The position numbers and the translations under genes are program-made. Below the pieces are notes generated by a model that saw only the letters and a list, made by a program, of their open reading frames with translations, had not been told where the DNA came from and did no database searches. Shown one piece after another: positions 16,221 to 51,618 of a stretch of DNA of 64,000 nt (within the stretch, counting starts at the first letter, position 1; the number at the start of each line of letters is the position of its first letter). Source of the stretch: Pelomonas sp. Root405 (GTDB taxonomy: Bacteria > Pseudomonadota > Gammaproteobacteria > Burkholderiales > Burkholderiaceae_C). The stretch spans positions 255,056-319,055 of the forward strand of contig NZ_LMDU01000014.1 of NCBI RefSeq assembly GCF_001425165.1. The letters run 5' to 3'.

Positions 16221-16235
16221 TGTAGCTGCACTACG
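16221..16235. promoter_or_regulatory. Candidate HexR-like operator, glucokinase divergent region (site 1)
   Basis: TGTAGCTGCACTACG has GTAG/CTAC arms around a five-base centre and lies 105 bases upstream of the glk-rpiR start. It belongs to the set of related palindromes described for the alpha-glucan genes. It is one of the weaker members. The rest of the 343-base gap holds no gene I can support. Confidence 0.35.
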
Positions 16236-16342
16236 GCTCACACACCGCGGTTTCCATGCGGCGATCACTGGGTCAATGAACGCTGAAACCGTTTTCGCCC
16301 TAGTGGAACGAAACCCAGGGTGCATTTGTATTGTCGATTTCA

Positions 16343-16357
16343 TGTAGTTTTGCTACC
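16343..16357. promoter_or_regulatory. Candidate HexR-like operator, glucokinase divergent region (site 2)
   Basis: TGTAGTTTTGCTACC matches TGTAGT-N3-GCTAC in 11 of 12 defined positions and lies 103 bases upstream of the second glucokinase. Its centre TTTTG is shared with the site before the pullulanase at 51604. Confidence 0.5.
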
Positions 16358-16459
16358 GTCCGCCGCGCCGCCAATTTCACCTTCAGAACCCGTGTTTGCC
16401 CCTGTCCGCCTCCTGAATATCCACAGCTTGTCGTGCCCCCTCGATTCCGGAGCCCGGGC

Positions 16460-17452
16460 ATGAGCGCGGTCTATCCCTGGCTGGTGGCAGACATCGGCGG
16501 CACGAATGCCCGTTTCGGCATCGTGGCCGGCCCAGGCGCCGCGGTGGAAGACGTGCGGGTGTTGTCGGTGGCGGGCCATGCGGGCTTGGCAGCGGCGGTG
16601 CGAACCTATGTGGACGGTCAAGCGCCCGGCAGCGCCGCGCCCAGGAGTGCCGCCCTTGCGCTCGCCACGGCGATCACTGATGACCGGATCGAGTTGACCA
16701 ACGGTGCCTGGGGCTTCTCGCGCGCTCAGACCCAGGCCGAACTGGGTTTGCAGACGCTGATCTGCTTGAACGACTTTGAAGCCCAGGCGCTGTCGTTGCC
16801 GCGCCTCAAGTCGCACCAGTTGCGTTCATGGGGCGCGCCGCCGCCGCCGGTTGACAGCGTCGCCACCGGCACCGTGATGGCCGTCATCGGCCCGGGGACG
16901 GGCCTGGGTGTCGGTGGCGTGGTGCGTGCGCCGGGCCGCTGGCTGGCGCTGCCGGGCGAAGGCGGTCACGTCACACTGGCGCCAGCCGACGATTTCGAGA
17001 GCGCCGTGTTGAGCCACGCGCGCCGCGAGTTCCCGCATGTGTCGGCCGAACGCTTCCTGTCGGGCATCGGCCTGCCGGTGCTGTGCCGCTCGGTGGCGGC
17101 TGCGCTGGGTGAAGGTGAAGATGTCAGCGCGCTGCCGACCGAACAGATCGTCGCGCGCGGCCTGAGCGGCGAGTCCCCGGCCTGCGTGCGCACGCTGGAT
17201 GTCTTCTGCGCCATGCTCGGCGGCTTTGCCGGGAGCGTTGCCCTAACGCTGGGTTCGCGCGGTGGCGTCTTCATCGGCGGCGGCATCGTGCCGCGTCTGG
17301 GCGAGCGCTTCTTCCAGTCTGAGTTCCGGGCTCGCTTCGAGGCCAAGGGCCGCTTCCAGTCCTATCTGGAGGGCATCCCGACCGCTCTCATCACCGACAC
17401 GCTCGCCGCGCTGTCGGGCGCCGCCCTGGCGCTGGAGCAGGCCGACGCCTGA
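16460..17452 (+). CDS. Second glucokinase (stand-alone)
   Basis: The 330-residue protein is a Glk-family glucokinase that phosphorylates glucose with ATP. It shows LVADIGGTNARFGIV, LICLNDFEAQALSLP, VIGPGTGLGVGGVV, LPGEGGHVTLAPADD and FIGGGIVPRLGERFF. It resembles the kinase half of the divergent fusion but is clearly diverged and has no regulator domain. The ATG at 16460 with GGAG about eight bases upstream is chosen; the frame is open further upstream but that region is intergenic. It stands next to the alpha-glucan genes, so it probably handles glucose released from imported maltodextrins. Confidence 0.9.
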   Translation: MSAVYPWLVADIGGTNARFGIVAGPGAAVEDVRVLSVAGHAGLAAAVRTYVDGQAPGSAAPRSAALALATAITDDRIELTNGAWGFSRAQTQAELGLQTLICLNDFEAQALSLPRLKSHQLRSWGAPPPPVDSVATGTVMAVIGPGTGLGVGGVVRAPGRWLALPGEGGHVTLAPADDFESAVLSHARREFPHVSAERFLSGIGLPVLCRSVAAALGEGEDVSALPTEQIVARGLSGESPACVRTLDVFCAMLGGFAGSVALTLGSRGGVFIGGGIVPRLGERFFQSEFRARFEAKGRFQSYLEGIPTALITDTLAALSGAALALEQADA

Positions 17453-17454
17453 CC

Positions 17455-17495
17455 GCCCGCGCGCAGGTCTGCGCGCGCGGCTCTTCTCTTCCTTC
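17455..17495 (+). terminator. Possible Rho-independent terminator after the second glucokinase
   Basis: Just past the stop, CGCGCGCAG and CTGCGCGCG (17458-17477) form a nine-base GC stem with a very tight loop, followed by a T/C-rich stretch. The tail lacks an uninterrupted T run, so termination may be partial. Confidence 0.35.
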
Positions 17496-17620
17496 ACGAG
17501 ATTCTTCTGTGCTGGCGTTGCTTCGGCTGCGCAAGCACGGGCGCTGGCGTGCGCCCGGTCGCGCGTACTGTCGATGCAGCCCCGACGGTCAACCACCTGT
17601 TGTTAACCCTAGATTGAGGC

Positions 17621-17635: not shown

Positions 17636-17887
17636 AGATTCGTCTTGGGTTCAAGTTCAGTCCACGAGATGTCAGTCGCAATCCCCTGTTCCATGCTGGT
17701 ATACCCTTGGTTTCAGGGTGAAATCAGGTCGCTTATGCGCAACGTCTAGGGTTTACGCAGGTGCGGAAAAAAATCTAGTTTTGATACAAACGCGGTGGAG
17801 ACACAAGGTTCTCGCCCAACAAGAAGCAAGCCGGCCGCCGGCTCGCATTCGGGCAAGCCGTTTTGCAATGAACTAGAGGAGACATCC

Positions 17888-20665
17888 ATGACCAAGAGCC
17901 AAGACAAGCGCGGATCGGGCACCGCCGCGTTCTTCCGCATCAGTCCGGTCGCCGTCGGCTGCACGCTGCTGATCGCCACCACCTGCGCAAGCGCTCAGCA
18001 GACCGCTGCCCCCCAGACGCTGGACACCGTGGTTGTCACGGGTATCCGCAAGGGCATCGAAGACGCCATCGTCACCAAGAAGAATTCGAACTCCATCATC
18101 GAGTCGATCTCCGCCGAAGACATCGGCAAGCTGCCGGACACCAGCATTGCGGAATCGATTGCCCGCCTGCCTGGCATCGCTGCGCAGCGCACGCGTGGCC
18201 GCGCCTCCCAGATCAGCATTCGCGGCATGGCGCCCGACTACGCCGCCACGCTGCTGAACGGTCGCGAGCAGGTCACCACGGGTGACAGCCGCGGCGTCGA
18301 GTTCGACCAGTTCCCCGGCGAACTGATCAGCAAGGTCGACATCTACAAGTCGCCTGACGCAGCGCTGGTCGGGCATGGCCTGTCTGGCACATTCAACATG
18401 CAGACGGCACGGCCGCTTGCATTCAAGCAGCGCGCTGCGGCCGTCAACTATCGCCAACAGAAGCTGGGCGTCGGCACGATCAGCGAGGGCGATGGCTCTC
18501 GTGCCAGCGTGTCCTACATCGACAACTTCGCTGACCGCACGATCGGCATTGCACTGGGCTTTGCGCGCCTCGACGAAACGACCGGCCAGACCGAGCGTTT
18601 CGACTCCTGGGGCGGTGGCACGACCACCTTCAATGGCCAGACGGTCAACGTGCCGTACAACGGTTTTGGGTTGTTCGCCGACCAGACCAAGCAAACGCGC
18701 GACGGCGCAATGGCAGTGCTTCAGTTCAAGCCCAACGCCAATTTCGAGAGCGCGGTCGACGTCTACTACTCGAAGTTCGATCAGGTCAAAAGCACCAAAG
18801 GCTTCCAAGCGCCGCTGAACGACTCGTGGCTGGACCCGGCAGGCAACGGCTACGACAAGCCGGGCACGCTGACCAGCGCCACGCTGAGCGGCAGCAATGT
18901 CACGCAGGGCACGTTCAACAACGTCCGCGCCGTCATCCGCAACGATGCTGAGGACCTGAAGGACCGCCTCAGCTCGGTAGGCTGGAACAACAAGCTGAAG
19001 TTCGCCGAAGACTGGATGGTCGAAGCCGACCTGAACCGTTCGACGGCCAAGCGCCGTGGCCAGATCCTCGAAACCACCGCCGGCACAGCGCAATCGGCGC
19101 TGAACACGGCGCAACTCGACACGATGCAGTTCACCGATGGTCGCAGCTTCACGCCGGGCCTGAACTACACCGACCGCAATATCGTCAAGCTGACCGACGT
19201 GCAAGGTTGGGGTGGTGGCGTCAACTCGCCGCAGGCGGGCTACTCCAAGCTGCCCAACGTCAATGACGAGCTGAACTCCGGCAAGGTCGTGCTGCACAGG
19301 GCGCTGAAGGACAACGCGTGGTTCTCCGGCTACCAGTTCGGCGCCAACTACACCGAGCGTGAGAAGACGCGCGCTTACATCGAGGGTCGACTGATCATCG
19401 CCGGCGGCACCAGCGGGCTTGCTTCAGCCGCGATGCCTGGCTCTGACACGCTGACGCTCAGCGGCGTCAGCTTCGCGACGTTTGATCCCACGAATGCCAT
19501 CGGCTCCGTCTACCAGATCGCCCCCAAGCTGCATCCGGACATCTACAACAAGGACTGGAAGGTTCAGGAAAAGCTGACCACCGCTTTTGCCAAAGCCGAC
19601 ATCGACACTGAACTGCTGGGCATGCCCGTGCGCGGCAACCTCGGTCTGCAGATCGTCGGTACCAAGCAGAACTCAACCGGCTTCAATGTGGACCGCGGCA
19701 ATTGCCCCAGCGACCAGAACTGCCCGGCGCTGGAGAGCAAGGGCGGCACGCGCTACACCGACGTGCTGCCGAGCCTGAACTTGAACTTCGAGCTCAGCGC
19801 TGACCAGATCGTTCGCCTGGGTGTGTCGCGCGTGATGGCTCGCGCCAACCTCAACGAGATGCGTGCGAGCCTGGGCCTGAGCGTCAGCACCTTCAACGAG
19901 AACGGCGTGCAGCGCGAGATCTATACCGGTGACGCGGGCAACCCCGCGCTGGAACCGACGCGCGCCAACGCCTTTGACATCGCCTACGAGAAGTACTTCG
20001 GTACCAAGGCCTATGTCGGCGTCGCGGGCTTCTACAAGGATTTGCGTACCTATGTGCTGCGCCAGTCGGTGCCGTTCGACTTCTCCTCCTACATCACGCC
20101 TTCCACCAAGAAGCTGCCAAGCAACATCGGTGCACTGACGATGCCGCTCAACGGCAACGGCGGCAAGCTGCAAGGTGTCGAGCTGTCAGCCTCGCTGCCG
20201 TTCAGCATGCTGTGGCGGCCGCTGGATGGCTTCGGCATGCAGGCCAACTACAGCTACACCGACAGCTCGGTCAAGCTGCTGCTCGGCGGCGTGACGGTGG
20301 ATGGCATCAGCTCCGTCGACATCCCGCTGCCCGGCCTGTCCAAGAACGTCAGCAACCTGACGCTCTACTACGACAAGTACGGCTTCTCGGCCCGCGTGGC
20401 CGCTCGCAAGCGCAGCGACTTCATCGGCGAAGTCAGCAGCTTCACGGGCGACAAGCAGTTCACCTGGGTCAAGGGCGACACCGTCACCGACGTGCAGCTC
20501 GGCTACGAAATGCAGAGCGGCATGTTCAAGGGTCTTTCGCTGGTGTTCCAGATCAACAACGTCACCGACGAGCCGTTCATCCGTTACGCCAACAATCCGA
20601 ACGACATCCGCGAGAACACCAAGTACGGCAAGACCTACCTGTTCGGTCTGAATTACAAGCTGTAA
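17888..20665 (+). CDS. TonB-dependent receptor, Xanthomonas/Caulobacter carbohydrate type
   Basis: The 925-residue outer membrane receptor has a signal peptide ending CASAQQ, a short TonB-box-like stretch (LDTVVVTGI), and a plug domain with IGKLPDTSIAESIARLPGIA and ISIRGMAPDYAATLLNGREQVTTG. A beta-barrel follows, ending in YLFGLNYKL with a terminal-residue pattern suited to BAM insertion. These features define the receptor family exemplified by Caulobacter MalA and Xanthomonas sugar receptors. With GH13 enzymes around it, it very probably imports maltodextrins across the outer membrane. The ATG at 17888 has AGAGGAGA six to seven bases upstream. It is first in a plus-strand cluster. Confidence 0.92.
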   Translation: MTKSQDKRGSGTAAFFRISPVAVGCTLLIATTCASAQQTAAPQTLDTVVVTGIRKGIEDAIVTKKNSNSIIESISAEDIGKLPDTSIAESIARLPGIAAQRTRGRASQISIRGMAPDYAATLLNGREQVTTGDSRGVEFDQFPGELISKVDIYKSPDAALVGHGLSGTFNMQTARPLAFKQRAAAVNYRQQKLGVGTISEGDGSRASVSYIDNFADRTIGIALGFARLDETTGQTERFDSWGGGTTTFNGQTVNVPYNGFGLFADQTKQTRDGAMAVLQFKPNANFESAVDVYYSKFDQVKSTKGFQAPLNDSWLDPAGNGYDKPGTLTSATLSGSNVTQGTFNNVRAVIRNDAEDLKDRLSSVGWNNKLKFAEDWMVEADLNRSTAKRRGQILETTAGTAQSALNTAQLDTMQFTDGRSFTPGLNYTDRNIVKLTDVQGWGGGVNSPQAGYSKLPNVNDELNSGKVVLHRALKDNAWFSGYQFGANYTEREKTRAYIEGRLIIAGGTSGLASAAMPGSDTLTLSGVSFATFDPTNAIGSVYQIAPKLHPDIYNKDWKVQEKLTTAFAKADIDTELLGMPVRGNLGLQIVGTKQNSTGFNVDRGNCPSDQNCPALESKGGTRYTDVLPSLNLNFELSADQIVRLGVSRVMARANLNEMRASLGLSVSTFNENGVQREIYTGDAGNPALEPTRANAFDIAYEKYFGTKAYVGVAGFYKDLRTYVLRQSVPFDFSSYITPSTKKLPSNIGALTMPLNGNGGKLQGVELSASLPFSMLWRPLDGFGMQANYSYTDSSVKLLLGGVTVDGISSVDIPLPGLSKNVSNLTLYYDKYGFSARVAARKRSDFIGEVSSFTGDKQFTWVKGDTVTDVQLGYEMQSGMFKGLSLVFQINNVTDEPFIRYANNPNDIRENTKYGKTYLFGLNYKL

Positions 20666-20680
20666 TCCGGTCGACCCTTT

Positions 20681-20714: not shown

Positions 20715-20735
20715 CATTTGCGAAGCGCTGTTCCC

Positions 20736-24326: not shown

Positions 24327-24357
24327 CCGCTGGTTCCAGCGGCCCGACAATCCGGGC

Positions 24358-28175: not shown

Positions 28176-29035
28176 GCATCGCCATGGCGGTCGAAGGCCG
28201 CGCGGATGGCCACCACCAGTTCTCCGGGCAACGGCCCGCGCTCGACCGCTTCGAGGTTGCGTTGCAGGTTGGCCGGTTTGGCGGTGCCGACGATGGCACT
28301 GGCCACGCCCGTGTGGAAGGCTGCGAAACGCAAGGCCACGTCGGCCCAGTCTTCCTGCGCGATCAGGCCCATGGCGCGGAAGCGGTCCCAGTACTGGCCT
28401 TCGGCGGAGTCAACGGGCCGCTTTGCATGGCGCCACACCGCGCCGGCCAGCGGGCGCTTGGCGATGACGCCGATGCCGGCGTGGTCGGCGCGGGCTGCGC
28501 GGTGCTGCAGATGCGCCTGGTCGCACAGGCTGACCGAGGTTTGCAGGCTGCCGAAGGCGCCGCTGGCAATCGCAAAGTCGATCTCGGCGTTGTCACCCGA
28601 GTAGGCGGCGACGCGCAGCTTGCCGGCGGTGCGGCAGTCGTTCAACGCCCGCACGACGTCGCCTTGTTCGAGCACGTGCAGCGGGCAGGAGTGGAGGTGG
28701 ACGATGTCGAGCCAGTCGGTCTTCATCAACCGCAACGCGCGCTCGACGCCCTGCACGATGCAGTCATACGTCCAGTCCGGCACGCCTTCGACGCCATAGC
28801 CGACCTTGGTGGACAGGATGAACTCCGTGCGGCGCGCGCTGAGATGGCGGCCGATGCGCTCCTCGCTCAGGCCGTAGCCGCGCGCGGTGTCGATGAGGTT
28901 GATGCCGACATCCAGCACATGGTTGAGCAGCGCGCCGGCCTCAGCTTCGGTCGTGCGCTCGTCGTTGATGTGCATGGCGCCGAAGCCGAGCGCAGACACC
29001 TGCAGGCCGGTGTGGCCGAGGGGATTCAGGATCAT
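28157..29035 (-). CDS. Aldo/keto reductase
   Basis: The 292-residue NADPH-dependent oxidoreductase shows the AKR tetrad D49, Y54 (LIDTARGYGLSEERIG), K77 (STKVGYG) and H115 (VHLHSC), with the family start PLGHTGLQVSALGFGAM and C-terminal AIVGTAKPANLQRNL. It reduces aldehydes or sugars of unknown identity. Its ATG overlaps the stop of the GH13 gene as ATGA. The same frame is open for 2 kb upstream but only because it runs antisense-free through the amylase gene; the AKR fold starts at 29035. Confidence 0.87.
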   Translation of the reverse strand: MILNPLGHTGLQVSALGFGAMHINDERTTEAEAGALLNHVLDVGINLIDTARGYGLSEERIGRHLSARRTEFILSTKVGYGVEGVPDWTYDCIVQGVERALRLMKTDWLDIVHLHSCPLHVLEQGDVVRALNDCRTAGKLRVAAYSGDNAEIDFAIASGAFGSLQTSVSLCDQAHLQHRAARADHAGIGVIAKRPLAGAVWRHAKRPVDSAEGQYWDRFRAMGLIAQEDWADVALRFAAFHTGVASAIVGTAKPANLQRNLEAVERGPLPGELVVAIRAAFDRHGDAWTGLI

Positions 29036-31416: not shown

Positions 31417-31421
31417 GGGAA

Positions 31422-32312: not shown

Positions 32313-32330
32313 TCAGAACTCCGAATACTT

Positions 32331-32402: not shown

Positions 32403-32416
32403 GCATTTCCTGCATT

Positions 32417-35163: not shown

Positions 35164-36284
<1,121 letters not shown>

Positions 36285-36486: not shown

Positions 36487-36501
36487 TGTAGTCAAACTAC
36501 A
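36487..36501. promoter_or_regulatory. Candidate HexR-like operator before glgP (best match)
   Basis: TGTAGTCAAACTACA has perfect six-base arms around CAA, the most symmetrical member of the set. It lies 84 bases upstream of glgP, in the malK-glgP divergent region, and could affect both directions. Confidence 0.6.
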
Positions 36502-36584: not shown

Positions 36585-39104
<2,520 letters not shown>

Positions 39105-39108
39105 ACTG

Positions 39109-41295
39109 ATGCTGAACGACGCCGACGTTGATGCCTTGCTGGCAGGCCGCCACGCCGACCCCTTTGCTCGGCTGGGCCTGCATGCGGACGACAACGGCCG
39201 GCTCTGGGTGCGCGTGCTGCTGCCGGGTGCCGACTCGGTCGCGCTGCTGGATGCCGGCAACCACAAGCGCATCGTCGAGCTGGAGCGCCGCCGCGACAGC
39301 CTGTGGGAAGCGCAGGTGCCGCGGCGCAAGCACCGCTTCGACTACCGGCTGGCGGTGCGCTGGACCGGGGGCGGGGAGGGCGCTGCAGAGGGCATTTACG
39401 CCGACCCCTACAACTTCTACCCGCAGCTCAGCGACGCGGAACTGCAGGCGCTGGCCGAGGGCCGCAACACCCGGCCCTACCTGAGCCTGGGTGCGCATGT
39501 CGTGCAGTACGGCGACGTCAGCGGTGTGCGCTTCGCGACCTGGGCGCCGAATGCCAGGCGTGTCAGCGTCGTCGGCAACTTCAACAACTGGGACGGCCGC
39601 CGCCACCCGATGCGGCTGCGGCACACGGCGGGCGTGTGGGAGATCTTCGTTCCCCACGCCACCCTGGGCGACCTCTACAAGTTCGAGATCGTCTCCGGCG
39701 GGGGCACGCTGCTGCCGCTGAAGGCCGACCCCTATGCGCGCCGCGCCCAGCTGCGGCCCGACACGGCCAGCATCGTCGCGGCCCTGCCTGAGGTCACGCC
39801 GCTGCCGCGCCAGCGCGAGCGCGCCAACCGGCGCGAGTCGCCCATCAGCGTCTACGAGGTGCATGCGGCCTCGTGGCGCCGCGGTGCGGGCGAATTCCCC
39901 ACGTGGGATGAGCTTGCCGAGCAGCTGCCGGCCTATGTCGCCGACATGGGCTTCACGCATCTGCAGCTGATGCCCATCACCGAATACCCCTTCGATGGTT
40001 CCTGGGGCTACCAGACGCTGGGCCTTTACGCGCCCAGCGCCCGCTTTGGCCCGCCGGAGGGTTTTGCGCGTTTCGTCAAGGCCTGCCACGACCAGGGCCT
40101 GGGCCTGCTGCTGGACTGGGTGCCGGCCCACTTCCCGACCGACCCCCACGGCATGGCCGAGTTCGACGGCACGCGCATCTACGAGTATGCGGACCCCAAG
40201 GAAGGCTTCCACCGCGACTGGAACACGCTGATCTACAACTTCGGCCGCACCGAGGTGCGCCAGTTCCTGGTCGGCAGCGCGCTGTACTGGATCGAGCGCT
40301 GGGGCGTCGACGGCCTGCGCGTGGACGCCGTGGCCAGCATGCTCTACCGCGACTACTCGCGGCCGGCGGGCGAATGGATTCCGAACGCTCGCGGCGGCCG
40401 GGAGAACCTCGAGGCCATTTCCATGCTGCGCGAGATGAACGAGCATGTCGGCGAAGTCGAAGGCGCCATCAGCGTGGCCGAGGAAAGCACCAGCTTTCCC
40501 GGCGTCTCGGCGCCCACCTATGCGGGCGGCCTGGGCTTTCACTACAAGTGGAACATGGGCTGGATGAACGACACCTTGCGCTACATGGCCGAGGACCCGA
40601 TCAACCGCCGCTGGCATCACGACAAGATGACCTTCGGCCTGATCTATGCGTTCAGCGAAAACTTCGTGCTGCCCATCTCGCATGACGAGGTCGTGCACGG
40701 CAAGGGCTCAATGCTCAGCAAGATGCCGGGCGACGACTGGCAGAAGTTCGCCAACCTGCGCGCCTACTACGGCTTCATGTGGGGCCACCCGGGCAAGAAG
40801 CTGCTCTTCATGGGCCAGGAGTTCGCTCAGCGCAACGAGTGGAACCACGCCGAGCCGCTGCCCTGGGCGCTGCTGGAGGACGACCGCCACGCCGGCGTGC
40901 AGCGCCTCGTTCGCGACCTCAACAAGCTCTACCGCGACCACTCCGCACTGCACCGGCTGGACTGCGAGGCCGGCGGCTTCGAGTGGATCAGCGCCCACGA
41001 CGCCGAGCACTCCATCTACGCCTGGGTGCGCCGCGACGGCACGGGCCGCATGGTCATCGTCGTCGTCAACATGACGCCGGTGCCACGCGAGGGCTACTCG
41101 CTCGGCGTGCCGGACGGCGTGACCGCCTGGCGCGAGGCGCTGAACACCGATTCCGCCTACTACGGCGGCAGCAACATGGGCAATGGCGTCGCAGCCGCTG
41201 GGCTGCCAGTGCAGGCGCAGCCGGCGCACGGCAAGCGGCTGTCGATCACGATCAATCTGCCGCCGCTGGCGACCTTGTTCTTCGTGCCGATTTGA
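39109..41295 (+). CDS. glgB: 1,4-alpha-glucan branching enzyme
   Basis: The 728-residue GH13 branching enzyme has an N-terminal CBM48 (ATWAPNARRVSVVGNFNNWDGR) and the catalytic barrel with D406 (DGLRVDAVASM), E458 (ISVAEES) and D526 (LPISHDEVVHGKGS). The HDEVVHGK stretch is diagnostic of GlgB. It starts four bases after glgP. A branching enzyme beside a phosphorylase points to intracellular glycogen cycling, yet no glgA or glgC is in the window. Confidence 0.94.
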   Translation: MLNDADVDALLAGRHADPFARLGLHADDNGRLWVRVLLPGADSVALLDAGNHKRIVELERRRDSLWEAQVPRRKHRFDYRLAVRWTGGGEGAAEGIYADPYNFYPQLSDAELQALAEGRNTRPYLSLGAHVVQYGDVSGVRFATWAPNARRVSVVGNFNNWDGRRHPMRLRHTAGVWEIFVPHATLGDLYKFEIVSGGGTLLPLKADPYARRAQLRPDTASIVAALPEVTPLPRQRERANRRESPISVYEVHAASWRRGAGEFPTWDELAEQLPAYVADMGFTHLQLMPITEYPFDGSWGYQTLGLYAPSARFGPPEGFARFVKACHDQGLGLLLDWVPAHFPTDPHGMAEFDGTRIYEYADPKEGFHRDWNTLIYNFGRTEVRQFLVGSALYWIERWGVDGLRVDAVASMLYRDYSRPAGEWIPNARGGRENLEAISMLREMNEHVGEVEGAISVAEESTSFPGVSAPTYAGGLGFHYKWNMGWMNDTLRYMAEDPINRRWHHDKMTFGLIYAFSENFVLPISHDEVVHGKGSMLSKMPGDDWQKFANLRAYYGFMWGHPGKKLLFMGQEFAQRNEWNHAEPLPWALLEDDRHAGVQRLVRDLNKLYRDHSALHRLDCEAGGFEWISAHDAEHSIYAWVRRDGTGRMVIVVVNMTPVPREGYSLGVPDGVTAWREALNTDSAYYGGSNMGNGVAAAGLPVQAQPAHGKRLSITINLPPLATLFFVPI

Positions 41296-41348
41296 GATGA
41301 AGCCTTTGCATGCTTTGGCTGGGGTTGCGTGGGGAGCGCAGGGCGGCG

Positions 41349-41523
41349 GGGTACCCCCAAAGCTCCATGTCCCCCGCCCGCTACGCGGCCTCCTCCTTTA
41401 CTTGCGCTTTGGGGGCACCCCACCACCCTGCTTGGTCGCGATGACCCGCAGCAGCTTGCCGCGGGATGTGGGTGGGGGCGGACACGAAGGTAAAGGAGGA
41501 GGCCGCGCAGCGGCCGGGGGACA
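41349..41523. repeat. Compound inverted repeat filling the glgB-glgX gap
   Basis: Two pairs of inverted arms are visible in this 290-base gap. GGGTACCCCCAAAGC (about 41349-41363) pairs with GCGCTTTGGGGGCACCCC (41404-41420). ATGTCCCCCGCCCGCTACGC and the following CTCCTCCTTTA (41367-41400) pair with the region 41488-41523 (TAAAGGAGGAGGCCGCGC ...GGGGGACA). The unit resembles a dispersed Burkholderiales-type intergenic element. No gene is present in the gap. Confidence 0.65.
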
Positions 41524-41585
41524 CGAAGTGGACGCGCCCGCCCGCAGCCCGCGGCCCTTCCGGTTTCCCGCGTCGGCGTTCTGAC

Positions 41586-43658
41586 ATGGCCCATCTTCCC
41601 GACATCGAACCCGGCTGGCACGAGCCCCTGGGTTCTTTCGCCCGAGACGGCGGCGTGAACTTTGCCGTCATGAGCGAGCACGCGACGCGCATCGAGCTCT
41701 GCGTCTTCGACGGCGAAGGCCAGCGCGAGCTGCGCCGCTACACGCTGGACGGCCCGCATGACGGCGTCTTCCACGGCTTCCTGCCCGGCGTCGGCCCCGG
41801 CCTGGTCTACGGCCTGCGCGCGCATGGTCCCTATGTGCCCGAGCAGGGGCACCGCTTCAACCCGCACAAGCTGCTGCTGGACCCCTGGGCGCGCGAGATC
41901 GTCGGTCACTTCGGCTGGCGCGCCGAGCACCATGGCTATGAGCTGGGCCACCCGGACGGCCCGCGCTCGCTGGACACGCGCGACAACGCCACGCAGGCGT
42001 TGAAGGCGCGCGTGGCACCGCCGCCGGTAGTACACGCGCGCGCCCACCAGCCGCGCCGCGCGCCGGCCGACGTCGTGCTGTATGAGGTCCACGTCAAGGG
42101 CTTCTCCAAGCTGCTGCCCGGCGTGCCCGAGGACCTGCGCGGCACCTATGCCGGCTTGGCGCACCCGGCCGCCGTGGCTCATTTCAAGCGCCTGGGGGTG
42201 ACGACGCTGTCGCTGCTGCCGGTGCAGTACTGCATCGACGAGCCCCACCTCGCCGAGCGCGGCCTGCACAACTACTGGGGCTACAACACGCTGGGCTTTT
42301 TCTGCCCGGACCCGCGCTGGGCGAATGCGGCCCACCGGCAAGACCCGACCGCCGTGACGGCCGAGTTCCGCCAGATGGTCGAGGCCCTGCATGCCGCCGG
42401 CCTGGAGGTGGTGCTGGACGTCGTCTACAACCACACGCCCGAGGGCAACGAGTTCGGCCCGACGCTGAGCTTTCGCGGCCTGGACAACACCACGTGGTAT
42501 CGGCTGGTGCCCGACGACAAGACCCGCAACGAGAACCTCACCGGCTGCGGCAACACCGTCAACTGCGCCCACCCGCGCGTGACGCAGTTCGTACTGGATT
42601 CGCTGCGCTATTGGGTGGCCGAGATGGGCGTCGACGGCTTCCGCTTCGACCTCGCACCGGTGCTGGGTCGTGGTGCGCACGGCTTCGAGACCAACGCCGC
42701 CTTCTTCACCGCGCTGCGCCAGGACCCTGTGCTGGCCGGCGTCCATCTGATCGCCGAGCCGTGGGACGCCGCCTATGACGGCTACCAGGTCGGCCGCTTT
42801 CCGGGCCGCTTCCTGGAATGGAACGACAAGTTCCGCGACGCCGTACGCGGCTACTGGTTGGGCGTGGGCACGGGTCGCGGCGAGTTCGCGCGGCGCTTCA
42901 TGGCGTCCAGCGACGTCTTCCACCACGGCCAGCGCCTGCCGACCGCCTCGGTCAACTTCGTCGCCGTGCACGACGGCTTCACCCTGGCCGACCTGACCAG
43001 CTACAGCACCAAACACAACCACGCCAACGGTGAAGACAACCGCGACGGCCGCGATGGCGAGTTGGCCGCCAACTTCGGTGTCGAGGGTCCAACCGACGAC
43101 GCGGCCATCAACGCCACGCGCGAGCGCGTGCGCCGCGCATTGCTCGCGACGCTGCTGCTGGCCCAGGGCACGCCGATGCTGTGCGCCGGCGATGAGATCG
43201 CCAACAGCCAGGGCGGCAACAACAACGCCTATTGCCAGGACAACCCGACGACCTGGCTGAACTGGGACAGTGCGGACGGCCGCATGACGGAGCTGGTGGC
43301 CGAATTGCTGGCCTTGCGCGCGGTCGAGCCGCTGCTGCGCCACCCGCGCTGGTTCGCCGCCGGCCCCGGTGAAGCGAGCATCGCCTGGTATGCGCCGAGC
43401 GGCCACGAGATGAGCCCGCACGACTGGCACGACGCCGGCCAGCGCGCGTTCGGGGCCCAGCTTCGTGAAGCCGATGCCGCTGCGCCGCGGCTGATGATCG
43501 TCTTCAACCCCGACCCGGCGCCCTTGCCCTTCCTGCTCTGCAACGGGCCGTGGCAGCTGGTGCTCGACAGCAGCGGCGAATCGGCCGCGCCCCTCGTTCT
43601 TCCCGGCCAGCCACTCCACGTGCCAGCCCGATCTCTTCTTGTCTTGAGACATCAATGA
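41586..43658 (+). CDS. glgX: Glycogen debranching enzyme
   Basis: The 690-residue GH13 enzyme cleaves alpha-1,6 branches of limit dextrins. An N-terminal CBM48 (GVNFAVMSEHATRIELCVFD) precedes a barrel with YNHTPEGNEFGPTLSFRGLDN, D355 (DGFRFDLAPVL), E391 (LIAEPWD) and D463 (VHDGF), all typical of GlgX/isoamylase. The ATG at 41586 is set by the start of CBM48 homology and follows a repeat-filled gap. Its stop overlaps the malQ start as ATGA. Confidence 0.93.
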   Translation: MAHLPDIEPGWHEPLGSFARDGGVNFAVMSEHATRIELCVFDGEGQRELRRYTLDGPHDGVFHGFLPGVGPGLVYGLRAHGPYVPEQGHRFNPHKLLLDPWAREIVGHFGWRAEHHGYELGHPDGPRSLDTRDNATQALKARVAPPPVVHARAHQPRRAPADVVLYEVHVKGFSKLLPGVPEDLRGTYAGLAHPAAVAHFKRLGVTTLSLLPVQYCIDEPHLAERGLHNYWGYNTLGFFCPDPRWANAAHRQDPTAVTAEFRQMVEALHAAGLEVVLDVVYNHTPEGNEFGPTLSFRGLDNTTWYRLVPDDKTRNENLTGCGNTVNCAHPRVTQFVLDSLRYWVAEMGVDGFRFDLAPVLGRGAHGFETNAAFFTALRQDPVLAGVHLIAEPWDAAYDGYQVGRFPGRFLEWNDKFRDAVRGYWLGVGTGRGEFARRFMASSDVFHHGQRLPTASVNFVAVHDGFTLADLTSYSTKHNHANGEDNRDGRDGELAANFGVEGPTDDAAINATRERVRRALLATLLLAQGTPMLCAGDEIANSQGGNNNAYCQDNPTTWLNWDSADGRMTELVAELLALRAVEPLLRHPRWFAAGPGEASIAWYAPSGHEMSPHDWHDAGQRAFGAQLREADAAAPRLMIVFNPDPAPLPFLLCNGPWQLVLDSSGESAAPLVLPGQPLHVPARSLLVLRHQ

Positions 43659-45166
43659 ATCTCGACCAACGCTCCTCCGGTGTGCTGCTGCACATCACCT
43701 CGCTGCCCGGCCCGCATGGCATGGGCGACTTCGGCCCCGATGCCTACCGCTTCGTCGACTGGCTGCAGTCCGCCGGCCAGAGCATCTGGCAGCTGCTGCC
43801 GACGACGCCCATCGGCCCCGGCGACAGCCCCTATCAAGGCGTGTCGGCCTTTGCCGGCAGCCAGTGGATGGTGGCACTGGAGCCGCTGATCGCGAAAGGC
43901 TGGCTGAAGCAGCCGGACGTGCCGGCCTTCAGCGGCGAGCTGATCAACTACGGCGCCGTCACGCCCTGGCGCGAGCAGCAGCTACGTGCCGCAGCAAAGG
44001 GCTTCTTCGCGGATGCGGCGGACGCGGACCGCATTGCTTTCGCCAAGTGGTGCCTGGAAGCGCAGAGCTGGCTGGACGACTACGTGCTCTTCATGGCCAT
44101 CCGCTCGCCGTTGAACGGCCAGCCGTGGTGGGAGTGGAGCGACGGTCTGAAGAAGCGCGACCCCGCCGCGATGGCCACGGCGCGCAAGGAATACGCTGAC
44201 GAGATCGCCTTCTGGCAGTTCGTGCAATGGCAGTTCGATGTGCAGATCCAGGCGCTGAAGGCCTATGCCAACGAGCGCGGCGTGAACATCATGGGTGACC
44301 TGCCCATCTTCGTCGCCCACGATAGCGCCGATTGCTGGTCGCGCCCCGACCTGTACGAGTTGGATGAGAACTTTCAGACCACGGTCGTTGCCGGCGTGCC
44401 GCCCGATGACCTGGGCCCGCTCGGCCAGCGCTGGGGCAACCCGCTCTACCGCTGGGACAAGATGGCCGAGGAAGACTACGCCTGGTGGACGGCACGCATC
44501 CAGCGCGCGCTGAGCCAGGCCGACGTCTTCCGCATCGACCACTTCCGTGGTTTTGCCGGCTACTACGAGATCCCCGCCAGCAGCCCCGATGCCAAGCAGG
44601 GCCAGTGGCTGACCGGCCCCGGCATGGCGCTGTTCGATGCCATCAAGAAGGCCCTGGGCCCGCTGCCCATCGTGGCTGAGGACCTGGGCTTCATCACCGA
44701 CGACGTGCATGAACTGCGCGACGGCTGCGGCTTCCCCGGCATGAAGATCCTGCAATTCGCCTTCGGTGCCGAGGGCGACCACGAGTTCCTTCCGCACATG
44801 TGGCCGCGGACCTCGGTGGCCTACACCGGCACGCACGACAACGACACCGTGCGCGGCTGGTGGGACCAGGCCGGCCCTCGCGAGCGCCAGTTCGCCGGCT
44901 CGTATCTGGCGTGCAGCGAGCATGACGTGCACTGGGCCATGATCCGCGCCTGCGCCAACTCGGTGGCCAACATGGCGGTCTACCCGCTGCAGGACGTGCT
45001 CGGCCTGGGCAGCGCCCACCGCATGAACGTGCCCGGCGTGCTGGGCGGCAACTGGGGCTGGCGCTTCCATTGGGGCATGCTGGGTGCCGAGCCGGCGCGG
45101 GTGCTGGGGCTGATCACCGCCGCGTCGGGGCGCGGCTCGTTCGAGCTGTTGAAGCTGCCAGCGTAG
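43655..45166 (+). CDS. malQ: 4-alpha-glucanotransferase
   Basis: The 503-residue GH77 disproportionating enzyme transfers maltosyl units between maltodextrins and releases glucose. It has the family start SSGVLLHITSLPGPHGMGD, D295 (FRIDHFRGF), E342 (IVAEDLG) and D395 (TGTHDNDTV), the GH77 triad. The length is that of short plant/bacterial amylomaltases. The ATG overlaps the glgX stop (ATGA). Together with GlgP and the glucokinases it completes maltodextrin catabolism. Confidence 0.94.
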   Translation: MNLDQRSSGVLLHITSLPGPHGMGDFGPDAYRFVDWLQSAGQSIWQLLPTTPIGPGDSPYQGVSAFAGSQWMVALEPLIAKGWLKQPDVPAFSGELINYGAVTPWREQQLRAAAKGFFADAADADRIAFAKWCLEAQSWLDDYVLFMAIRSPLNGQPWWEWSDGLKKRDPAAMATARKEYADEIAFWQFVQWQFDVQIQALKAYANERGVNIMGDLPIFVAHDSADCWSRPDLYELDENFQTTVVAGVPPDDLGPLGQRWGNPLYRWDKMAEEDYAWWTARIQRALSQADVFRIDHFRGFAGYYEIPASSPDAKQGQWLTGPGMALFDAIKKALGPLPIVAEDLGFITDDVHELRDGCGFPGMKILQFAFGAEGDHEFLPHMWPRTSVAYTGTHDNDTVRGWWDQAGPRERQFAGSYLACSEHDVHWAMIRACANSVANMAVYPLQDVLGLGSAHRMNVPGVLGGNWGWRFHWGMLGAEPARVLGLITAASGRGSFELLKLPA

Positions 45167-47746: not shown

Positions 47747-47769
47747 GCGGCGCCTCCTTGGCGGCCGGG

Positions 47770-49644
47770 TCAGGGCTCGGTCACTTCGAGCACGAGGGCC
47801 GAGCGGACGGGCAGCGCCAGCGCGCGGCCCAGCTCGTGACGCGTGCCACTGATGACGTCGCGGCCAGCGGCGCGCGGCGACAGCATGTCGCTGAAGCGGC
47901 CGGTGTCGAGCGTGGTGGTGGCGGTGTTCTTGTTCATCACCACCATGACCTTCTGCGTGGCCGTGTAGCGGAAATAGACGTACACGCCGTCCAGCGGGTT
48001 GTAGTGCATGAGCTTGCCGCTGTGGATCGCGGGTGAACTCTTGCGCCAGGTCAGCAGCTTGCGCAGATAGGCCTGGGCGTCGCGCTGCGCATCGGTCAGG
48101 CCGCGGCCCGAGACGGCGTCGACTGCATCGCCGGCCCAGCCGCCGGGGAAGTCGGCGCGGGTGGCGCCGTCGGCCCGCTCGATGGGGCTCTTCATCAGGA
48201 TCTCGCTGCCGTAGAAGAACTGCGGCGTGCGTGCCGTCGTCGCGATGAAGGTGACGGCCATGCGGTTCAGCGCGGCGTCCTCCCCCAGCGCGGAGTAGAT
48301 GCGGTTGGTGTCGTGGTTGCCCTCGAACAGCACCATGCGGGTCGGCTCGGGGTAGAGCGCGTCGTTGGTCATCGCGTCGTAGATCTTGCCCCAGCCGGTG
48401 CCATAGCCCTTGCCTTCGGGCTCGACCAGCGCGTCGCGCAGCCAGTAGTGCAGCGGGAAGTCCATCATGCTGGGCATGTGCGACACATAGCCGTCGTGCT
48501 TCGGGTGGCCGGCCAGCCAGTAGGCCACCATCAGCGGGTTGTTGCTCATCTCCTCGCCGACCAGCGTCAGCCGCGGGTACTCGCGCATCACCGCCGCCGA
48601 CCAGCGCGACAGGAAGGCCTTGTCCGAGTACGGGTAGGTGTCCACGCGCAAGCCCGACAGGCCGGCGTCCTCGACCCACCAGATCGCGTTCTGGATCAGG
48701 TAGCGCGCCATGCGCGGATTGCGCTGGTTCAGGTCCGGCATCGTCGGCACGAACCAGCCGCCCGCGAAGCGTTCGCGGTCGCTCGGCGCCGTGTAGGGGT
48801 CGAGTTGCGTCACGTGGCGGTGGTTGGTTTCGGTGTACTGCGCATGCTGGTTGACCCAGTCGCGCGAGGGCAGGTCCGCCATCCACCAGTGGCCCGAGCC
48901 GATGTGGTTGGGCACGATGTCGTGGATGACGCCGATGCCCTTGGCGCGCGCCTGGGCGACCAACGCGCGGTAGTCGTCGTTGCTGCCGAAACGCGGGTCG
49001 ATCTTGTAGAGGTCGGTCGGCGAGTAGCCGTGGTACGAATAGCTGGGTTGCTTGTTCTCGACGAGCGGCGTCGGCCAGAGCTGCGTGAACCCGAGGCCGG
49101 CGATGTAGTCCAGCTTGTCGGCGATGCCCTTGATGTCGCCGCCGTGGCGGCCGTCGACATGGGCCCGGTCCACCGGGTCGCCCAGGCCGCCGGCGTTGTC
49201 GTTGCCGGGGTCGCCGTTGGCGAAGCGGTCGGGCACGACCAGGTAGATGGCGTCCCGACTGTCGAAGCCCTGGCGCTGTGCCGAACCTGGTGCGCGGGCG
49301 CGCAGCGTGTAGGCATGGCTGGCGACGACCTTGCCGTCGCTGCCGATGAAGTCGAGGTTCAGCGTGCCGGGCTTTGCGGTGGCGGCGATGTCGAGTTCGA
49401 CGAACAGGTAGTTGTCGCTGTCCAGCCGTTGGCTACCCTTGAGGCGCACGCCGGGCAGCGCGTTGCGCAGGCTGGCGCCCGCCTTGGCAATGCCGGGTGC
49501 ATGCACCATCAAATCGAGCCGGCTCTCGCGCATGCCGGCCCACCAGTGCGGCGGCTCGATGCGGTCGATGGCGGTGGCGGCCCACGCAGAGGTGGTCGAG
49601 ATCAGCAGCGCAGCCAGCAGGCCGCGGGTCAGGCGTCGGTTCAT
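47770..49644 (-). CDS. Secreted SusA-like neopullulanase/cyclomaltodextrinase (copy 2)
   Basis: The 624-residue paralogue has the same order of parts: signal peptide (RGLLAALLISTTSAWA), RIEPPHWWAGMRES, SYSYHGYSPTDLYKIDPRFG, D335 (GLRVDTYPYSD), E364 (LVGEEMS) and D445 (EGNHDTN). Differences from copy 1 concentrate in surface loops and the C-terminal domain, suggesting different chain-length preferences. The start lies two bases after the preceding amylase stop. Confidence 0.92.
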   Translation of the reverse strand: MNRRLTRGLLAALLISTTSAWAATAIDRIEPPHWWAGMRESRLDLMVHAPGIAKAGASLRNALPGVRLKGSQRLDSDNYLFVELDIAATAKPGTLNLDFIGSDGKVVASHAYTLRARAPGSAQRQGFDSRDAIYLVVPDRFANGDPGNDNAGGLGDPVDRAHVDGRHGGDIKGIADKLDYIAGLGFTQLWPTPLVENKQPSYSYHGYSPTDLYKIDPRFGSNDDYRALVAQARAKGIGVIHDIVPNHIGSGHWWMADLPSRDWVNQHAQYTETNHRHVTQLDPYTAPSDRERFAGGWFVPTMPDLNQRNPRMARYLIQNAIWWVEDAGLSGLRVDTYPYSDKAFLSRWSAAVMREYPRLTLVGEEMSNNPLMVAYWLAGHPKHDGYVSHMPSMMDFPLHYWLRDALVEPEGKGYGTGWGKIYDAMTNDALYPEPTRMVLFEGNHDTNRIYSALGEDAALNRMAVTFIATTARTPQFFYGSEILMKSPIERADGATRADFPGGWAGDAVDAVSGRGLTDAQRDAQAYLRKLLTWRKSSPAIHSGKLMHYNPLDGVYVYFRYTATQKVMVVMNKNTATTTLDTGRFSDMLSPRAAGRDVISGTRHELGRALALPVRSALVLEVTEP

Positions 49645-49646
49645 CG

Positions 49647-51266
49647 TCAGTTCAGGGTGTAGACGCGTACCGACAGCGCCGGCAGCGTGATGCGGAGTTG
49701 CCCTTGGGCATCGGCCTTCGGTGTGGCGGCACCGCGCGGATAGGCCGTCGCGGCGCGCGCGCCGGCCACGGTGATGGACGCCGGCTGGTCGCCGTAGTTG
49801 ATGGCAACCAGGCTGCGCTGCTTGCCGTGCACGCGCTGGAAGCTCCAGACCGGGCCTTCGACCTTGTCGGCTTCGTAGCGGCCCAGCGTCAGCGCCGGGG
49901 ATGCGCGGCGCAGGGCGATCAGCTCGCGGTAGAAGTTGAACAGCGAGCCGGCATCGCGCTGCTGGTTTTCGGCGTTATGCAGGCTGCGGTTCAGCGAAAG
50001 CGGGCGGAAGGGCTGTGTGTTCGTTGAGAACCCGCCAGCAGGCGTCCAGCTCATCGGCGAGCGCAGCGGTGCATCGTCTTCGGCGCCCCTGCCGTCGATG
50101 CCGGCCTGGCCGATCTCTTCGCCGTAGTAGACGAAGGGCGTGCCCGGCAGCAGCAGATAGCTGGCCGCCGCCAGCCGGTAGCGCGCCTCGTCGCCGCGGA
50201 GCTGGTCCCACAGGCGCTGGCCGGTGAAGATGTCGTGGTTGTGCAGGAAGGTCGCCATCGTCGGCGCCATCGTGCGGTAGTAGTCGGCCACCTTCTGCAG
50301 GGCGGCCGCGTCGCCCTTGGCCGCTTTGACGATCTCGTAGTTCTGGTTGAACGCGAAGGCGCCACCGCACAGGCCGGGATCGCCGTAAGCGATGGGTTCG
50401 GCCGTCGCCTCGCAGACGACATAGCGGCTCGGGTAGCTCTTGATCAGGTCCTGGAAGCGCTTGGTCAGCGCGCGGCTTTCGGGCTGGTCGTTCCAGTCCT
50501 GGGCGTTGTTCTCGATCAGGTGGGGCACAGCGTCCAGCCGGTAGCCGTCCAGGCCGCGGTTGAGCCAGAAGCGCATGGAGTCCTCGTGGTACTGCACCAC
50601 GGCTGGGTTGCGCATGTTGAAGTCGGGCATGTGAGGCCCGAAGGTGCCGAAGAAGATGTCCGGCGAGCCCGGTGTGATGGGCGGCATGTCCTTCAACAAG
50701 CCGGTCCAGGTCCAGGGCTGCTTGGCGGCGTCGTACCAGGGGTACTTGCCCCAGATGTCCCAACCCGGGCCGGGGTCGGTGTTCCAGACGAACCAGCTGC
50801 GCCAGGGGCTGGCGCGGTCGGCCACGGCTTGCTGGAAGGGCGGGAACTGGTACGACGCATGGTTGATGACGTAGTCCATGACGATGCCGATGCCGCGCTT
50901 GTGCGCCTCGCGGATCAGCTCGTCGAAGTCCGCCAGCGTGCCGTACTGCGGCTCGATGGCGCGGAAGTCGGTCGTCGCATAGCCGTGGTCGTGGTCGGAG
51001 CTGGCGGTGATGGGCATCAGCCAGATACCGCTGATGCCGAGCGTCTTCAGGTAGTCGAGCCGGCTTGTCAGGCCACGCAGGTCGCCGACGCCGTCGCCAT
51101 CGCTGTCCCGATAACCGCGCACGAAGATTTCCATGAAGACGCCGTGCTGCCAGTGGGCGGGCAGGCCACTGGCGCGCGGCTGGGCCGGCACGGCGCGCGT
51201 GTCGATCTGGGCGTGGGCCGCGCACGCTGCAGCCAGCGCAAGGGAAGAAAGAAGTTGCTTGGACAT
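49647..51266 (-). CDS. Secreted GH13 alpha-amylase
   Basis: The 539-residue exported enzyme has a signal peptide (MSKQLLSSLALAAACAAHAQ), region I DYVINHA, D245 (DGYRLDAVPH), E286 (VVCEAT) and D345 (LHNHDIF). The beginning FMEIFVRGYRDSDGDGVGDL and the SSDHDHGYATTDF region resemble alpha-amylases and oligo-glucosidases of the trehalose synthase group. The ATG at 51266 is chosen because it starts a clean signal peptide; it lies four bases after the stop of an orphan domain remnant. First intact gene of a three-gene GH13 unit. Confidence 0.9.
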   Translation of the reverse strand: MSKQLLSSLALAAACAAHAQIDTRAVPAQPRASGLPAHWQHGVFMEIFVRGYRDSDGDGVGDLRGLTSRLDYLKTLGISGIWLMPITASSDHDHGYATTDFRAIEPQYGTLADFDELIREAHKRGIGIVMDYVINHASYQFPPFQQAVADRASPWRSWFVWNTDPGPGWDIWGKYPWYDAAKQPWTWTGLLKDMPPITPGSPDIFFGTFGPHMPDFNMRNPAVVQYHEDSMRFWLNRGLDGYRLDAVPHLIENNAQDWNDQPESRALTKRFQDLIKSYPSRYVVCEATAEPIAYGDPGLCGGAFAFNQNYEIVKAAKGDAAALQKVADYYRTMAPTMATFLHNHDIFTGQRLWDQLRGDEARYRLAAASYLLLPGTPFVYYGEEIGQAGIDGRGAEDDAPLRSPMSWTPAGGFSTNTQPFRPLSLNRSLHNAENQQRDAGSLFNFYRELIALRRASPALTLGRYEADKVEGPVWSFQRVHGKQRSLVAINYGDQPASITVAGARAATAYPRGAATPKADAQGQLRITLPALSVRVYTLN

Positions 51267-51270
51267 GGCT

Positions 51271-51528
51271 TCAACGCGGATGCGTGTAGACGCACAAGGA
51301 TTGCGCGGGAACGGTGACGCGGGCGTGGCCGGCCGCGTCACTCGATGGGTTGATGGCGCCCGCGGGGTAGGCGGCTTGCAGCGCTGAGCTGGCCGGCAGG
51401 TCAGCCGGGTTGACCTCGGCCGAGGTGTTGCCAAATTTGATGATGGCCGGCTGGGTGGCCGTGCGGCGGTGGAAGCTCAGCAGTGCGCCGCTGGCGCTGG
51501 CGAAAGTCCTGATAACCAAGTGATTCAT
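51271..51528 (-). pseudogene. Orphan GH13 C-terminal (domain C) fragment
   Basis: An 85-codon frame from ATG 51528 to TGA 51271 encodes only a GH13 C-terminal sheet domain. GALLSFHRRTATQPAIIKFG and AAYPAGAINP...VTVPAQSLCVYT align with the end of the adjacent amylase (WSFQRVHGKQRSLVAINYGD; TAYPRGAATP...ITLPALSVRVYT). No catalytic domain remains and there is no ribosome site before its ATG. The best reading is the 3' remnant of a deleted amylase gene that once headed this unit, now its leader. Expression as a small domain is possible. Confidence 0.7.
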
Positions 51529-51542
51529 GTAATCAAACTACT
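51528..51542. promoter_or_regulatory. Candidate HexR-like operator before the minus-strand GH13 unit
   Basis: TGTAATCAAACTACT shares TCAAACTAC with the glgP site and overlaps the ATG of the orphan domain fragment. It is the expected position of the promoter for the minus-strand amylase unit. Confidence 0.45.
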
Positions 51543-51603
51543 TTGATGTTCGCCGCGAGCATAGCGACTTCACCTATGCGCGTGCTATGGGGATTTCGAT
51601 GAA

Positions 51604-51618
51604 AGTAGTTTTGCTACT
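51604..51618. promoter_or_regulatory. Candidate HexR-like operator before the pullulanase
   Basis: AGTAGTTTTGCTACT has perfect five-base arms and lies 26 bases upstream of the pullulanase ATG, close enough to block transcription or the start of the message. Confidence 0.55.

What the first reader, a model, noticed from the sequence alone, without database searches (positions are those of the whole stretch)
16221..51618. Candidate HexR-like regulon spread over the alpha-glucan genes
Six 15-base palindromes share TGTAGT-N3-RCTACA: 16221, 16343, 17621, 36487 (perfect), 51528, 51604, plus a degenerate one at 17774. All lie in intergenic regions before glucokinases, TonB receptor, glgP and GH13 units. 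They resemble the known HexR site TGTAAT-N3-ATTACA and lack the central CG of LacI sites. The RpiR/HexR-type domain fused to glucokinase at 14206 is the only fitting regulator in view. This would couple alpha-glucan uptake to a sugar phosphate made by its own kinase half.
Basis: partly seen in the sequence, partly recalled or inferred. Interest (0 to 1): 0.72.

Follow-up and report, generated by a model that had tools for sequence, protein, structure and literature searches.

The report
Starch genes under kinase-fused regulator
A set of matching DNA switches in front of a bacterium's starch-eating genes is most likely worked by a protein that joins a glucose-phosphorylating enzyme to a gene regulator, and this regulator seems to have lost the part that senses its relatives' usual signal, so what it senses is open.

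Summary
The sites are real and conserved. Of 80 relatives' loci, 74 carry the motif upstream of the fusion gene; the best of 59 permuted motifs reaches 13. In seven chosen relatives' genomes, 18 of 19 exact sites lie in this alpha-glucan locus.

The motif equals the published 15-bp site TGTAGT-N3-ACTACA of the HexR paralogue RccR (PMC5489143). Sites of this frame also precede zwf in 14 of 14 chosen Burkholderiales stretches with glk-hexR by zwf, 8 of them within one mismatch of TGTAGT-N3-ACTACA. The Glk-RpiR fusion shares that HexR's recognition helix. Own zwf and edd carry another site type; a second HexR with intact KDPG pocket follows zwf.

The proposed signal is not supported: three KDPG contacts of RccR (Ser139, His148, His164; PMC10810197) are replaced in 81 of 81 fusions.

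Best reading: a HexR-derived repressor fused to glucokinase, moved from zwf to starch genes, with a changed effector. Binding and repression are inferred. New variant of a known kind.

The parts
14206..16116 (-). fusion protein: glucokinase (aa 9-323), RpiR-type HTH (336-406), SIS domain (457-584), conserved C-terminal tail PLARLTSHSR; proposed regulator
   Evidence: Pfam PF02685, PF01418, PF01380; NCBIfam PRK14101 825.4 bits, under its cut-off of 920; tail
16221..16235 (-). operator CGTAGTGCAGCTACA, 105 bp upstream of the fusion start
   Evidence: conserved in relatives
16343..16357 (+). operator TGTAGTTTTGCTACC, before glk2; may overlap an extended -10 (inference)
   Evidence: GGTAGCAAAACTACA at this place in many relatives
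16460..17452 (+). second, free-standing glucokinase (glk2) with canonical DIGGTN loop
17621..17635 (+). operator TGTAGTTGAGCTACA before the TonB receptor gene (exact)
17774..17788 (+). imperfect but conserved operator-like site TCTAGTTTTGATACA, may overlap the TonB-receptor promoter (inference)
   Evidence: 50 of 54 relatives' loci
17888..20665 (+). TonB-dependent receptor, TIGR01782 (start chosen by eye)
29032..36284 (-). malK, malE, malF, malG and a GH13 enzyme; leftward unit behind site 36487 (one operon is an inference)
36487..36501 (.). perfect operator TGTAGTCAAACTACA between divergent malK and glgP; overlaps a -35-like TTGACT of the malK side
36585..45166 (+). glgP, glgB, a GH13/CBM48 protein, malQ (GH77); rightward unit behind site 36487 (one operon is an inference)
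47770..51434 (-). two GH13 enzymes (cyclomaltodextrinase type and alpha-amylase type)
51528..51542 (-). weak operator AGTAGTTTGATTACA before the leftward GH13 genes
51604..51618 (+). operator AGTAGTTTTGCTACT, about 27 bp before the pullulanase start; may overlap an extended -10 (inference)
51645..54356 (+). pullulanase-type GH13
60930..64000 (-). second pullulanase-type gene; runs past the window end to about L020:1567; operator TGAAGTAAAACTACA at G000:C14:319601-319615, outside the window

Best explanation
The sites are operators of the Glk-RpiR fusion. It descends from the HexR gene that in other Burkholderiales lies next to glk behind zwf; glk and hexR fused, and in this lineage the gene came to the alpha-glucan locus while keeping its DNA specificity (GTAGY-N3-RCTAC). 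It most likely represses its own gene, glk2, the TonB receptor, malKEFG, glgP-glgB-malQ, the GH13 genes and two pullulanases by sitting on or near their promoters, and lets go when alpha-glucan-derived sugar is present. Zwf and edd carry a different site type (GTAAY), and zwf has its own HexR paralogue behind it. The effector has changed: the KDPG pocket is rebuilt, so the signal is another ligand of the SIS domain or the state of the fused glucokinase. Shown by comparison: sites, conservation, target set, ancestry, pocket change. Inferred: binding by the fusion, repression, the signal.
For: Sites: 74 of 80 relatives' loci have one (2 mismatches or fewer) within 450 bp upstream of the fusion; best of 59 permuted half-sites 13, coding control 0 of 80. 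Of 208 sites with 1 mismatch or fewer in these 80 loci, 198 lie within 450 bp upstream of a fusion, glk2, TonB, GH13, pullulanase or Trp-halogenase homologue. Whole genomes: 18 of 19 exact sites of seven chosen relatives are in the locus (two of the 18, in G002 and G008, are placed only by sequence and spacing). Regulator: in 14 chosen stretches with unfused glk-hexR behind zwf, 28 sites of the form TGTARY-N3-RYTACA (1 mismatch or fewer) lie within 450 bp upstream of zwf, in 14 of 14, against 2 in the rest of the 77 kb; 8 of 14 have one within 1 mismatch of TGTAGT-N3-ACTACA. G142 and G030, with the fusion behind zwf, have TGTAGTTTAACTACA and TGTAGTAATGCTACA. Recognition helix VSQPTVIRFCR in 96 of 98 fusion rows and 14 of 15 unfused zwf-operon rows, VSKPTVVRFCR in 23 of 23 second-HexR rows. 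Pseudomonas RccR binds the 15-bp site by SPR and footprint, weakened by KDPG (PMC5489143, passages). glgP site in 7 of 11 genomes with a fusion, 0 of 18 testable without. Pocket.
Against: No binding or expression data. Four fusion genomes show no glgP site: G195 (4 bp upstream held), G212 (431 bp held), G179 (a 59% glgP) and G225 (distant fusion, 44%); G212 has none before its fusion either (L223). Fusion, locus type and site all follow descent, so co-occurrence is confounded. Four of 80 fusion loci (L054, L055, L084, L091) have no site with 1 mismatch or fewer in the DNA held. The zwf sites of relatives are a mix: L263 has only TGTAAT-N3-ATTACA and L254 only TGTAAC types, so the same regulator class also takes GTAAY sites. 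The promoter-like match of the fusion gene lies 46 bp from site 16221, not under it, and no promoter-like match was found at 51528/51604. The motif is not over-represented genome-wide. RccR S139A, H148A and H164A lost DNA binding (PMC10810197), and the fusion has other residues at all three.
Confidence: 0.7

Rival explanations
1. The fusion binds the sites and still senses a sugar phosphate (KDPG or glucose 6-phosphate) in its SIS domain, with a different but working pocket.
For: Arg485 (RccR R152) and Ser516 (RccR S183) are invariant in 81 of 81 fusions, and the SIS domain is as conserved as the kinase half (mean pairwise identity 0.78 against 0.75), so a ligand site may remain. RccR senses KDPG (PMC10810197, PMC5489143, passages).
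Against: The residues at Ser139, His148, His164 and Ser188 are replaced in 81 of 81, and the stretch holding Lys270 and Arg277 is replaced by a linker and a new tail. In RccR, R152A, K270A and R277A lost detectable KDPG binding, and S183A, S185A and S188A bound it weakly, Kd 16-29 uM (PMC10810197, passages).
Confidence: 0.2
2. The second HexR, encoded behind zwf, binds the alpha-glucan sites with its intact KDPG pocket, and the fusion is mainly an enzyme.
For: It keeps nine of nine KDPG residues, and unfused HexR promoters elsewhere mix GTAGY and GTAAY sites.
Against: Own zwf has TGTAACTTAGTTTCG, a form kept in 18 of 20 genus genomes, not TGTAGT; recognition helix VSKPTVV against VSQPTVI; the sites flank the fusion gene and not the second hexR.
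Confidence: 0.09
3. An unrelated regulator (LacI, AraC or other) encoded elsewhere binds the sites; the fusion is a neighbour only.
For: 13 LacI-type HTH matches in the genome, and alpha-glucan genes are often LacI targets (established knowledge, recalled).
Against: None of the 13 is in the window. LacI sites usually have a CG centre (recalled); here the centre is a variable N3. Sites of the same frame precede zwf in relatives with glk-hexR by zwf, and the motif is the published RccR site (PMC5489143).
Confidence: 0.07
4. The sites act as activator sites, the fusion switching genes on (an alternative to repression, with the same regulator).
For: KDPG strengthens RccR binding at its 28-bp sites (PMC5489143, passages); the main TonB site lies about 220-375 bp upstream of the receptor start; the 16221 site lies upstream of the promoter-like match.
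Against: Sites 16343, 17774 and 51604 share TTTTG-N-TAC, which resembles an extended -10, and 36487 overlaps a -35-like hexamer; but several relatives have TTTTAGTAC, without the TG.
Confidence: 0.15

Closest known systems
RccR of Pseudomonas (RpiR family, KDPG sensor; PDB 8K3B)
   Same: 15-bp site TGTAGT-N3-ACTACA; HTH plus SIS; with 8JU9 the best PDB match of the fusion's regulator half, 221 bits
   Different: RccR is not fused, controls aceE, aceA, glcB, pckA and itself, and binds KDPG through residues most of which the fusion has replaced (PMC5489143, PMC10810197, passages)
HexR encoded with glk behind zwf (Neisseria L149, other Burkholderiales)
   Same: operators of the same 15-bp frame before zwf, near-identical recognition helix, glk as neighbour
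   Different: unfused; Ser139/His148/His164 kept in 38 of 39 unfused rows; sites lie before zwf, alpha-glucan genes not seen nearby in the stretches held
PRK14101 / NF010701 bifunctional transcriptional regulator/glucokinase (Burkholderia type)
   Same: same domain order; fused rows lie on one side of a branch, 100/99
   Different: score 825.4 under the cut-off 920; zwf-linked members exist (G030, G142); pocket and P-loop differ
LacI-type MalR/MalI regulators of maltodextrin genes
   Same: regulon content (recalled)
   Different: no LacI gene in the window; site without a CG centre

Membership tests
HexR / RpiR family | RpiR HTH followed by SIS domain | tested here: met
   PF01418 67.4 bits, PF01380 58.2 bits
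HexR (NCBIfam NF008451 and NF010701) | score above the curated cut-off | tested here: not met
   239.5 against 296 and 825.4 against 920
HexR | controls zwf / Entner-Doudoroff genes | tested here: not met
   by sites only: own zwf has TGTAACTTAGTTTCG and own edd AGTAATATGGTTACC; no TGTAGT-type site with 1 mismatch or fewer near either
HexR / RccR | KDPG-binding residues of RccR | tested here: not met
   residues at Ser139, His148, His164, Ser188 replaced in 81 of 81 fusions, Arg152 and Ser183 kept; nine of nine kept in the zwf-linked HexR
RccR | 15-bp operator TGTAGT-N3-ACTACA | tested here: met
   by sequence only: against PMC5489143
RccR | control of aceE, aceA, glcB, pckA and a 28-bp site | not tested
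   the 28-bp form was not searched; of 19 sites with 1 mismatch outside the locus, 11 were examined and lie in open frames of 200 codons or more
Glucokinase (PF02685) | NDF, EGGH and ERxxSG motifs (roles in glucose binding recalled) | tested here: met
   81 of 81, 81 of 81, 79 of 81
Glucokinase (PF02685) | Asn of the DIGGTN phosphate loop (role recalled) | tested here: not met
   Asn in 0 of 81; Tyr or Phe in 80, Glu in 1
LacI operators | palindrome with central CG (recalled) | tested here: not met
   15-bp frame with a variable centre
HexR-type repressor | DNA binding and release by ligand | not testable with these tools
   needs purified protein

The most novel reading that the evidence does not exclude
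The glucokinase half has become the sensor. The fused enzyme keeps its glucose-binding motifs but has an aromatic residue in place of the phosphate-loop Asn, and the attached HexR has lost its own sugar-phosphate pocket, with a conserved new tail (PLARLTSHSR) where the pocket-closing stretch was. Glucose (or glucose plus nucleotide) bound to a weak or dead kinase would then release the repressor, while the adjacent glk2 does the catalysis: a metabolic enzyme turned into the signal input of a transcription factor.
Probability: 0.27. Interest if true: 0.82.

Novelty: new variant of a known kind. Interest (0 to 1): 0.62.

Why it matters
If true, a central-metabolism regulator kept its DNA code but changed both its gene set and its signal after fusing to the enzyme encoded next door. 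Two paralogues in one genome, with operators that differ mainly at one inner position and with different recognition helix and pocket, make the split directly testable. Roseateles saccharophilus DSM 654 (L036), recalled to be the organism in which the Entner-Doudoroff pathway was found, carries the same fusion and sites, so a classic sugar user could be re-examined. I found no paper on this fusion or on HexR control of starch genes in searches (listings; passages of PMC5343134 and PMC5507952 read). One search was swamped by starch papers, and only open-licence papers are held, so this is weak evidence of absence.

Tried and rejected
Loose pattern counts genome-wide were below their reversed control and carry no weight. 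Helical phasing of paired sites: no signal (25 distinct spacings, R 0.18, 47% of null draws as high), so no looping claim. AlphaFold2 of the fusion from 14 sequences was poor (mean pLDDT 57.8, pTM 0.37) and was not used; no fold search was run. Promoter- and terminator-like scans gave little. An Entner-Doudoroff link through the TGTAGT motif in the own genome was looked for and not found. The 17774 site was first taken as noise and then found conserved.
Full report
What is there. The window is G000:C14:255056-319055 of an unnamed 5.81 Mb genome. Its fusion protein is 96% identical to that of Pelomonas sp. Root1217, so it is a Roseateles/Pelomonas-type member of the Burkholderiales. The window holds an alpha-glucan locus: TonB receptor, malKEFG, glgP, glgB, malQ, several GH13 enzymes and two pullulanases. 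Two fit the stated consensus exactly. The core GTAGY-N3-RCTAC occurs five times in 64 kb, each time at a reported site.

More than chance. Shuffles of the window give 1.24 matches against 24. In the 80 loci kept from 208 relatives of the fusion, 74 have a site with 2 mismatches or fewer in the 450 bp before the fusion; 59 permuted half-sites give at most 13 loci, median 1, and the coding control gives 0. Of 208 sites with 1 mismatch or fewer in these loci, 198 are within 450 bp upstream of a target homologue, 6 are inside the TonB gene and 4 are elsewhere (its four motif-fetched loci left out). In seven chosen relatives' genomes there are 19 exact TGTAGY-N3-RCTACA sites (reversed control 34) and 18 belong to this locus: 15 of the 16 fetched ones are flanked by fusion/glk2, glk2/TonB or malK/glgP, one more lies by the fusion by coordinates (G201), and two are placed by sequence and spacing alone (G002, G008). 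The odd one (G196, L241) lies in a 736-codon open frame. In the own genome both exact sites are in the locus. A site outside the window, at C14:319601, stands about 35 bp before the second pullulanase. Against this, counts genome-wide are lower than for the reversed pattern, so position and not number carries the argument.

The regulator. Only two RpiR-type HTH matches exist in the genome: the fusion, and one behind zwf. The site is the 15-bp site bound by Pseudomonas RccR, TGTAGTAAAACTACA and TGTAGTTTTACTACT before aceE, weakened by KDPG (PMC5489143, passages). I took 14 Burkholderiales stretches where glk and unfused hexR lie behind zwf: 28 sites of the wider form TGTARY-N3-RYTACA (1 mismatch or fewer) lie within 450 bp upstream of zwf, at least one in each, and 2 in the rest of the 77 kb. 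Eight of the 14 have one within 1 mismatch of TGTAGT-N3-ACTACA; L263 has only the TGTAAT form and L254 only TGTAAC forms. G142 and G030, where the fusion itself lies behind zwf, have TGTAGTTTAACTACA and TGTAGTAATGCTACA. The five other fused stretches fetched (G079 twice, G148, G081, G225) show no zwf but matches to GH13, ABC-transporter or TonB proteins of the window, some of them weak or generic. A tree of 59 regulator halves puts the fused ones on one side of a branch (100/99; midpoint root, long branches flagged). So the fusion looks like a former zwf-operon HexR. The recognition helix is the same in fused and unfused zwf-operon proteins and differs in the second HexR. The zwf promoter of the genus carries TGTAACTWAGTTTCG in 18 of 20 genomes, the own included; the own edd has AGTAATATGGTTACC.

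Co-occurrence. Among 30 family genomes with a glgP match, a site before glgP is found in 7 of 11 with a fusion and in 0 of 18 testable ones without (G210 has no upstream DNA). The four exceptions are G195 and G212 (4 and 431 bp of upstream DNA held), G179 (another glgP type) and G225 (a distant fusion). G212 has no site before its fusion either. Descent confounds this test.

The signal. In the RccR-KDPG structure nine residues touch KDPG (PMC10810197, passages). The second HexR keeps nine of nine. The fusion has Tyr for Ser139 (81 of 81), Phe/Tyr/Leu for His148 (72/7/2), Arg or Lys for His164 (79/2), Leu/Val/Ile/Met for Ser188 (61/12/6/2), Ser/Gly/Thr at Ser185 (51/29/1), and keeps Arg152 and Ser183. 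None of 98 fused rows keeps Ser139, His148 and His164 together; 38 of 39 unfused rows do, the exception, L144, having Asn at 148 (L224 moved). As the fused branch may have one origin these are not independent events, but other fused lineages show other changes (Cys-Gln-Gln, Ser-Tyr-Tyr, Ala-His-His and so on). The stretch with Lys270 and Arg277 is replaced by a variable linker and a tail: 68 of 81 end in PLxxLT(S/A)HSR, 12 more are close by eye, and L083 is cut by its contig end. The SIS domain stays constrained, so I read this as a changed input, not a dead domain. The kinase half keeps its glucose-binding motifs but has Tyr or Phe for the Asn of DIGGTN in 80 of 81 (the roles of these residues are recalled).

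Mechanism. Site 36487 overlaps a -35-like hexamer of the malK side. Sites 16343, 17774 and 51604 share TTTTG-N-TAC, like an extended -10; the imperfect 17774 site is kept in 50 of 54 loci, though several have TTTTAGTAC without the TG. The promoter-like match of the fusion gene lies 46 bp from site 16221 and not under it. On balance this fits repression by covering promoters, with auto-control. It is inference.

Verdict. It works like HexR/RccR at the DNA, but the KDPG-pocket and Entner-Doudoroff features are not met, so I do not file it as HexR proper.

Noticed in passing
14209-14238 (C-terminus of the fusion) and L028-L107: Conserved C-terminal tail: 68 of 81 fusions end in PLxxLT(S/A)HSR, 12 more are close; several other fused lineages also have an SH pair near their end (L153, L155, L156, L159, L225).
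   Followed up: partly
16060-16083 (phosphate loop of the fusion): DIGGTN loop of glucokinase changed to an aromatic residue at the Asn in 80 of 81 fusions; free-standing glk2 keeps Asn.
   Followed up: partly
L185:1243-1257: Own edd has AGTAATATGGTTACC about 50 bp before its likely start, the zwf-like site type; one genome only.
   Followed up: partly
L188, L189, L191, L192: Four relatives have two operators 87-89 bp apart before glgP, where the window has one.
   Followed up: no
L045, L084, L091: Fusion gene directly downstream of a pullulanase gene, perhaps one operon; L045 has a site before that pullulanase, L084 and L091 have none with 1 mismatch or fewer.
   Followed up: partly
20679-22250: Tryptophan-halogenase-like protein next to the TonB receptor; role in glycan uptake unknown.
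   Followed up: no
55756-58578: Serine/threonine protein kinase with TPR repeats at the edge of the locus.
   Followed up: no
24166-25197: RIO1-type kinase inside the interval of the finding.
   Followed up: no
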